Source of the DNA: Candidatus Bathyarchaeota archaeon
Lineage (GTDB): Archaea > Thermoproteota > Bathyarchaeia > 40CM-2-53-6 > CALIRQ01
Direction of reading: 5' to 3'
NCBI GenBank assembly: GCA_028275385.1
Contig: JAPWUR010000004.1
Coordinates: 1 to 34,591, forward strand
Length of the DNA stretch: 34,591 bases
This document shows, piece by piece, positions 27,288 through 32,586 of the stretch (positions are counted from its first letter, which is position 1; every line of letters starts with the position of its first letter). Under the pieces are notes generated by a model. It searched no databases, was not told the origin of the DNA, and saw nothing but the letters and a program-made list of their open reading frames with translations. The translations under genes and the position numbers were made by a program.

Positions 27288-28947
<1,660 letters not shown>

Positions 28948-29086: not shown

Positions 29087-29118
29087 AGGACGCCATTCGA
29101 GCGTGGGTTCCCGAGTAG

Positions 29119-32178
<3,060 letters not shown>

Positions 32179-32278
32179 CGAAAAAGGAGCCCGCGCTCGA
32201 GCGAAATCCGAGGGAAGGCGTATGCGCGGCGGCCATGGCGACGACAAGCTTATCCCACCGCTGGCCATTATGCCAAAT

Positions 32279-32586
32279 CGGGGCCGGCGAGCCGGTGGGC
32301 GGCCGTCGGGCCTTTGGGCCTGTGGAAACTCCACCCACGCTGCGGGGGCGCGGCGCCGCGAGGCGCCGGGCGAGAGCCCGTGGCCGGGCACAGAAATGGG
32401 ACCTGCCGCCGCTCGATGGGGATGGGGCGGCGACGCCGACGAGGCGGCGGATTAGGATGGAACCAGCCCGCCCGCGCCGTGAAAGGGCGAGTAGGCGCCG
32501 ATGAGCACCGCACGAGGCGCGGGTAGCCCGATCAGACGGATGCCGCCTAAAACAGAAGGTGGGTTACGGCCGGGACGCCGGCCCCG
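32279..32586 (+). ncRNA. rnpB: RNase P RNA
   Basis: 11-bp P1 helix CGGGGCCGGCG (32279-32289)/CGCCGGCCCCG (32576-32586). CR-I-like GGAAACUCCACCC pairs with CR-V-like ACAGAAGGUGGGUUAC (P4, bulged U). Internal GUGAAAGGGCGAGUAGG, GAUGCCGCCUAAAACAGAAGG. Confidence 0.88.

What the first reader, a model, noticed from the sequence alone, without database searches (positions are those of the whole stretch)
32326..32566. RNase P RNA with an inverted base pair in the catalytic P4 helix
The near-universal P4 strands AAG-U-CC.../...GGCUU appear here as AAC-U-CCACC (32327-32335) and GGUGG-GUU (32558-32565). The pairing and the bulged U are preserved, but the G68-C pair is flipped to C-G. This is a compensatory change inside the most conserved helix of RNase P.
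Basis: partly seen in the sequence, partly recalled or inferred. Interest (0 to 1): 0.7.

Follow-up and report, generated by a model that had tools for sequence, protein, structure and literature searches.

The report
Ordinary archaeal RNase P RNA
The gene is a normal archaeal RNase P RNA (the RNA enzyme that trims transfer RNAs), and the flipped base pair in its active-site helix is the usual state in two of the large archaeal groups sampled, so it is not a surprise in itself.

Summary
Window 32287-32578 (+) is a full-length archaeal RNase P RNA (Rfam RF00373, 148.6 bits, single copy). E. coli pair G68-C is C-G here, with the bulged U kept.

C-G was found in 26 of 27 RNase P RNAs from relatives of the same order or class (one bacterial-type contaminant excluded), in 65 of 67 clearly called sequences of the phylum sample, and in 50 of 50 from the phylum of Methanobrevibacter. 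The phyla of Methanothrix (30/30) and Thermoplasmata (29/30), and bacteria (65/65), carry G-C. A scan that left both positions free gave 115 matches, all G-C or C-G, none mixed. So this is a genuine but old, clade-wide compensatory change, and the Rfam consensus already prints the pair as variable.

The more unusual thing lies outside the window: 17 of 399 Thermoproteota genomes have A in place of the "universally conserved" bulged U. I report it as an aside. The window itself is ordinary.

The parts
32287..32578 (+). archaeal RNase P RNA gene (full length by the Rfam model)
   Evidence: RF00373, 148.6 bits, model 1-288; single copy in the genome
32327..32335 (+). P4 5' strand AAC-U-CCACC; C32329 is the E. 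coli G68 position, U32330 the bulged U69
   Evidence: sequence and CM alignment
32558..32565 (+). P4 3' strand GGUGG-GUU; G32563 pairs with C32329
   Evidence: sequence and CM alignment
29117..32180 (+). 23S rRNA gene; its 3' end lies 106 bases upstream of the RNase P RNA, same strand
   Evidence: RF02540, 2864 bits; the same linkage recurs in relatives

Best explanation
This is the single, ordinary RNase P RNA of a Thermoproteota archaeon, in the same class as named Bathyarchaeota genomes. With its archaeal protein subunits it cuts the 5' leader from pre-tRNAs, using metal ions held at P4 beside the bulged U (mechanism from established knowledge of the family). Its C68-G pair is the inherited state of its clade, produced by one or a few ancient two-sided changes that kept the helix paired. 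Since the metals are held by P4 backbone phosphates and by the bulged U base, a flipped Watson-Crick pair at 68 should leave the catalytic geometry largely unchanged (inference).
For: Full-length CM match. C-G in every same-order sequence with a readable P4 apart from one bacterial-type contaminant. C-G in 65/67 clearly called sequences of the phylum sample and 50/50 of the Methanobrevibacter phylum; G-C in 30/30 of the Methanothrix phylum and 29/30 of the Thermoplasmata phylum. In a scan with both positions free: 65 bacteria G-C, 29 archaea C-G, 21 archaea G-C, 0 mixed. Rpp30, Pop5 and Rpp29 genes are present in the genome. Metal ligands at P4 include phosphates of A50 and G51 and O4 of U52 in T. 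maritima numbering (PMC4919922). In M. jannaschii the active-site residues listed are G40, U41 and U42, and in yeast A91, U92 and U93 (PMC6565675), so position 68 appears to be U in those enzymes (my reading).
Against: No activity data for this RNA. Its CM score (148.6) is lower than that of many relatives. That phosphate ligation makes the base identity unimportant is inferred, not shown.
Confidence: 0.95

Rival explanations
1. The flip is a recent, lineage-specific change in the catalytic helix of this organism, possibly with altered catalysis.
For: Differs from the bacterial and Halobacteriota G-C consensus.
Against: The same C-G pair is in the two other members of its genus, throughout its order, in nearly all sampled Thermoproteota families and in the phylum of Methanobrevibacter.
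Confidence: 0.01
2. The RNA is a degenerate or pseudogene copy and P4 drifted.
For: Lower CM score than many relatives (148.6 against 190-235 bits).
Against: Only copy in a 96% complete genome, P4 and flanking conserved motifs intact, and its two congeners score alike at 154.4 and 149.7 bits.
Confidence: 0.02
3. The pair-68 flip reflects adaptation to the archaeal protein subunits or to temperature rather than neutral compensatory drift.
For: State is fixed by large clade, with no mixed pairs seen in the free-position scan.
Against: Halobacteriota and Thermoplasmatota keep G-C although they are archaea too (shared archaeal-type proteins: general knowledge). By record titles, Methanobrevibacter from gut samples and marine Nitrosopumilus share C-G, which argues against temperature.
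Confidence: 0.1

Closest known systems
Archaeal RNase P RNA (Rfam RF00373)
   Same: Full-length match, conserved sequence motifs recognisable, P4 with bulged U, C68-G as in most Thermoproteota and in the phylum of Methanobrevibacter
   Different: Nothing beyond ordinary sequence divergence was found
Bacterial RNase P RNA
   Same: P4 layout AAN-U-CC / GG-N'UU
   Different: Pair 68 is G-C in all 65 bacterial sequences returned by the scan
M. jannaschii RNase P (PMC6565675)
   Same: P4 active site with bulged U42; same multi-protein archaeal design
   Different: By the residue list of that paper (G40, U41, U42) position 68 is U, not C (my reading)

Membership tests
Archaeal RNase P RNA (RF00373) | Covariance-model score above the family's gathering score over the whole model | tested here: met
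   148.6 against 84 bits, positions 1-288
Archaeal RNase P RNA (RF00373) | P4 helix formed by CR-I and CR-V with a single bulged nucleotide | tested here: met
   Eight standard pairs around bulged U32330
Archaeal RNase P RNA (RF00373) | Conserved sequence ACAGAAA in the specificity domain and ACAGAA before the P4 3' strand | tested here: met
   Seen in the CM alignment
Archaeal RNase P RNA (RF00373) | Archaeal RNase P proteins in the same genome | tested here: met
   Rpp30 53 bits, Pop5 47 bits (neighbours on one contig), Rpp29 86.9 bits, each one copy above cut-off; Rpp21 and L7Ae not searched
Archaeal RNase P RNA (RF00373) | Cleaves pre-tRNA 5' leaders | not testable with these tools
   Needs biochemistry
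   C-G is the majority state in the host phylum and in the phylum of Methanobrevibacter

The most novel reading that the evidence does not exclude
Pair 68 is a deep two-state character in Archaea, and the C-G state is a permissive background: the 17 natural RNase P RNAs found with A instead of the 'universally conserved' bulged U sit on C68-G, so the flip would loosen the constraint on the metal-binding bulge. The window has the C-G background but keeps the U.
Probability: 0.15. Interest if true: 0.5.

Novelty: new member of a known kind. Interest (0 to 1): 0.12.

Why it matters
It corrects an impression drawn from bacteria. The G68-C pair of P4 is not part of the universal core: it covaries cleanly, and 29 of the 50 archaeal sequences in the free-position scan carry C-G. 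That is independent comparative support for P4, but it makes this window ordinary. The practical gain is the pointer to natural A69 and G68-A variants in other Thermoproteota, which bear directly on how universal the bulged U is.

Tried and rejected
A single-strand regular-expression pass missed reverse-strand loci and was redone on both strands. The first strict pattern missed P4 variants, so a scoring caller that allows them was used. Four loci fell below its cut-off: L029 is truncated; L056, L080 and L081 are real variants read by eye. L028 has a bacterial-type P4, sits in a 74% complete genome and scores below the family cut-off, so it was treated as contamination. Columns that change together with A69 were sought; none besides the bulge itself separated 17 A69 from 10 U69 sequences. 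The original paper on the universal core (Chen and Pace 1997) is not in the held library, so prior printed mention of the C-G state could not be checked there; searches of the open library did not show one. DPANN and Asgard phyla were not sampled on purpose.

Full report
What is there. The stretch 32287-32578 on the + strand is a complete archaeal RNase P RNA: Rfam RF00373, model positions 1-288, 148.6 bits against a gathering score of 84. It is the only match in the 1.16-Mb genome. The covariance-model alignment assigns the same letters to P4.

Which organism. G276:C23 has the length and RNase P position of JAGTQB010000003.1 'Candidatus Bathyarchaeota archaeon JZ_bin_23'. G367:C120 corresponds to QMXE01000120.1, and G179:C12 to JAUWDY010000003.1, both Bathyarchaeota. 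So the window is probably from a Bathyarchaeia archaeon within Thermoproteota (inference from these matches). The genome encodes Rpp30 and Pop5 side by side, and Rpp29 elsewhere, so the usual holoenzyme is expected.

Is C-G at pair 68 unusual? No. Among relatives of the same order and class, 26 of 27 readable RNAs have C-G; the exception is L004 (same class, G-C), and one further sequence, L028, is bacterial-type and probably contamination. Across a sample of the phylum chosen to cover many families, 65 of 67 clear calls are C-G; the others are one U-G (L069) and one G-A (L070). Three further Thermoproteota loci fell below the caller's cut-off; read by eye, L080 is C-G and L056 and L081 are G-A. 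In the phylum of Methanobrevibacter, 50 of 50 are C-G, including 20 taken from lower down the score ranking. In the phyla of Methanothrix and of Thermoplasmata, 30/30 and 29/30 are G-C. These samples favour high-scoring matches, so the percentages are approximate.

Named sequences. No G-G or C-C pair was seen. This is clean covariation and confirms the pair, but it shows two common states. The Rfam consensus itself prints this pair in lower case, unlike the A and U residues next to it, so the variation is already in the curated alignment.

How it works. P4 holds the catalytic metals. In T. maritima numbering the ligands are phosphate oxygens of A50 and G51 and O4 of the bulged U52 (PMC4919922). 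G51 is E. coli G68, so the base there is not itself named as a ligand, and a flipped Watson-Crick pair should keep the backbone in place (inference). The M. jannaschii cryo-EM paper lists G40, U41 and U42 at the active site and A91, U92 and U93 in yeast (PMC6565675), which I read as U at position 68 in both. So structures of active enzymes already lack G68.

Surroundings. The RNase P RNA begins 106 bases after the end of 23S rRNA on the same strand. The same linkage, with the sarcin-ricin motif about 390-460 bases before P4, recurs in most relatives of the order whose contigs reach that far, and in some other families. Co-transcription with the rRNA operon is possible but was not tested.

An aside that may be worth more than the finding. 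A pattern for P4 with A in place of the bulged U, GGAARCACC then ACWGAAGNCGGGYTA, occurs in 17 of 399 Thermoproteota genomes, in 9 genera and 6 families, with no control matches. Each of those genomes has just one RNase P RNA match, and all pairs of P4 are kept (for the six of them called there). All are on the C68-G background; the pattern required that, but no A69 was seen among the sampled G-C sequences either. The M. jannaschii study calls this uridine universally conserved and reports that U42A greatly lowers activity (PMC6565675). Two further families have G-A at pair 68, or a shifted bulge (L070; L056 and L081). Whether these variants were described before in papers outside the held library is unknown.

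Verdict. Observation confirmed, rarity refuted, ordinary member of a known family. Interest is low for the window itself.

Noticed in passing
L326-L342 (17 Thermoproteota genomes), also L057, L068, L072, L076, L082, L100: RNase P RNAs with A in place of the bulged U of P4 (E. coli U69), described in the literature as universally conserved; each is the only RNase P RNA match in its genome.
   Followed up: partly
L070, L056, L081: P4 with G opposite A at pair 68, which can also be read as a shifted bulge (G68 bulged, U69-A paired).
   Followed up: partly
L073, L075, L076, L080, L100: The neighbouring A67-U pair of P4 is G-C, another two-sided change in this helix; L066 and L099 have U-A at pair 70.
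   Followed up: partly
L003 and L030 (G039 contig C6, 92530-98204): Two different RNase P RNAs, about 69% identical, on one contig: one upstream of 16S, one just downstream of 23S, both scoring above 190 bits.
   Followed up: partly
window 27670-27820: About 155 extra bases in the 16S rRNA gene at the helix following CCUCCGCAA, foldable into a long stem; possibly an archaeal rRNA intron or an expansion.
   Followed up: no
window 32180-32287 and relatives: RNase P RNA gene placed about 100 bases downstream of 23S rRNA, an arrangement repeated in most relatives of the order.
   Followed up: partly
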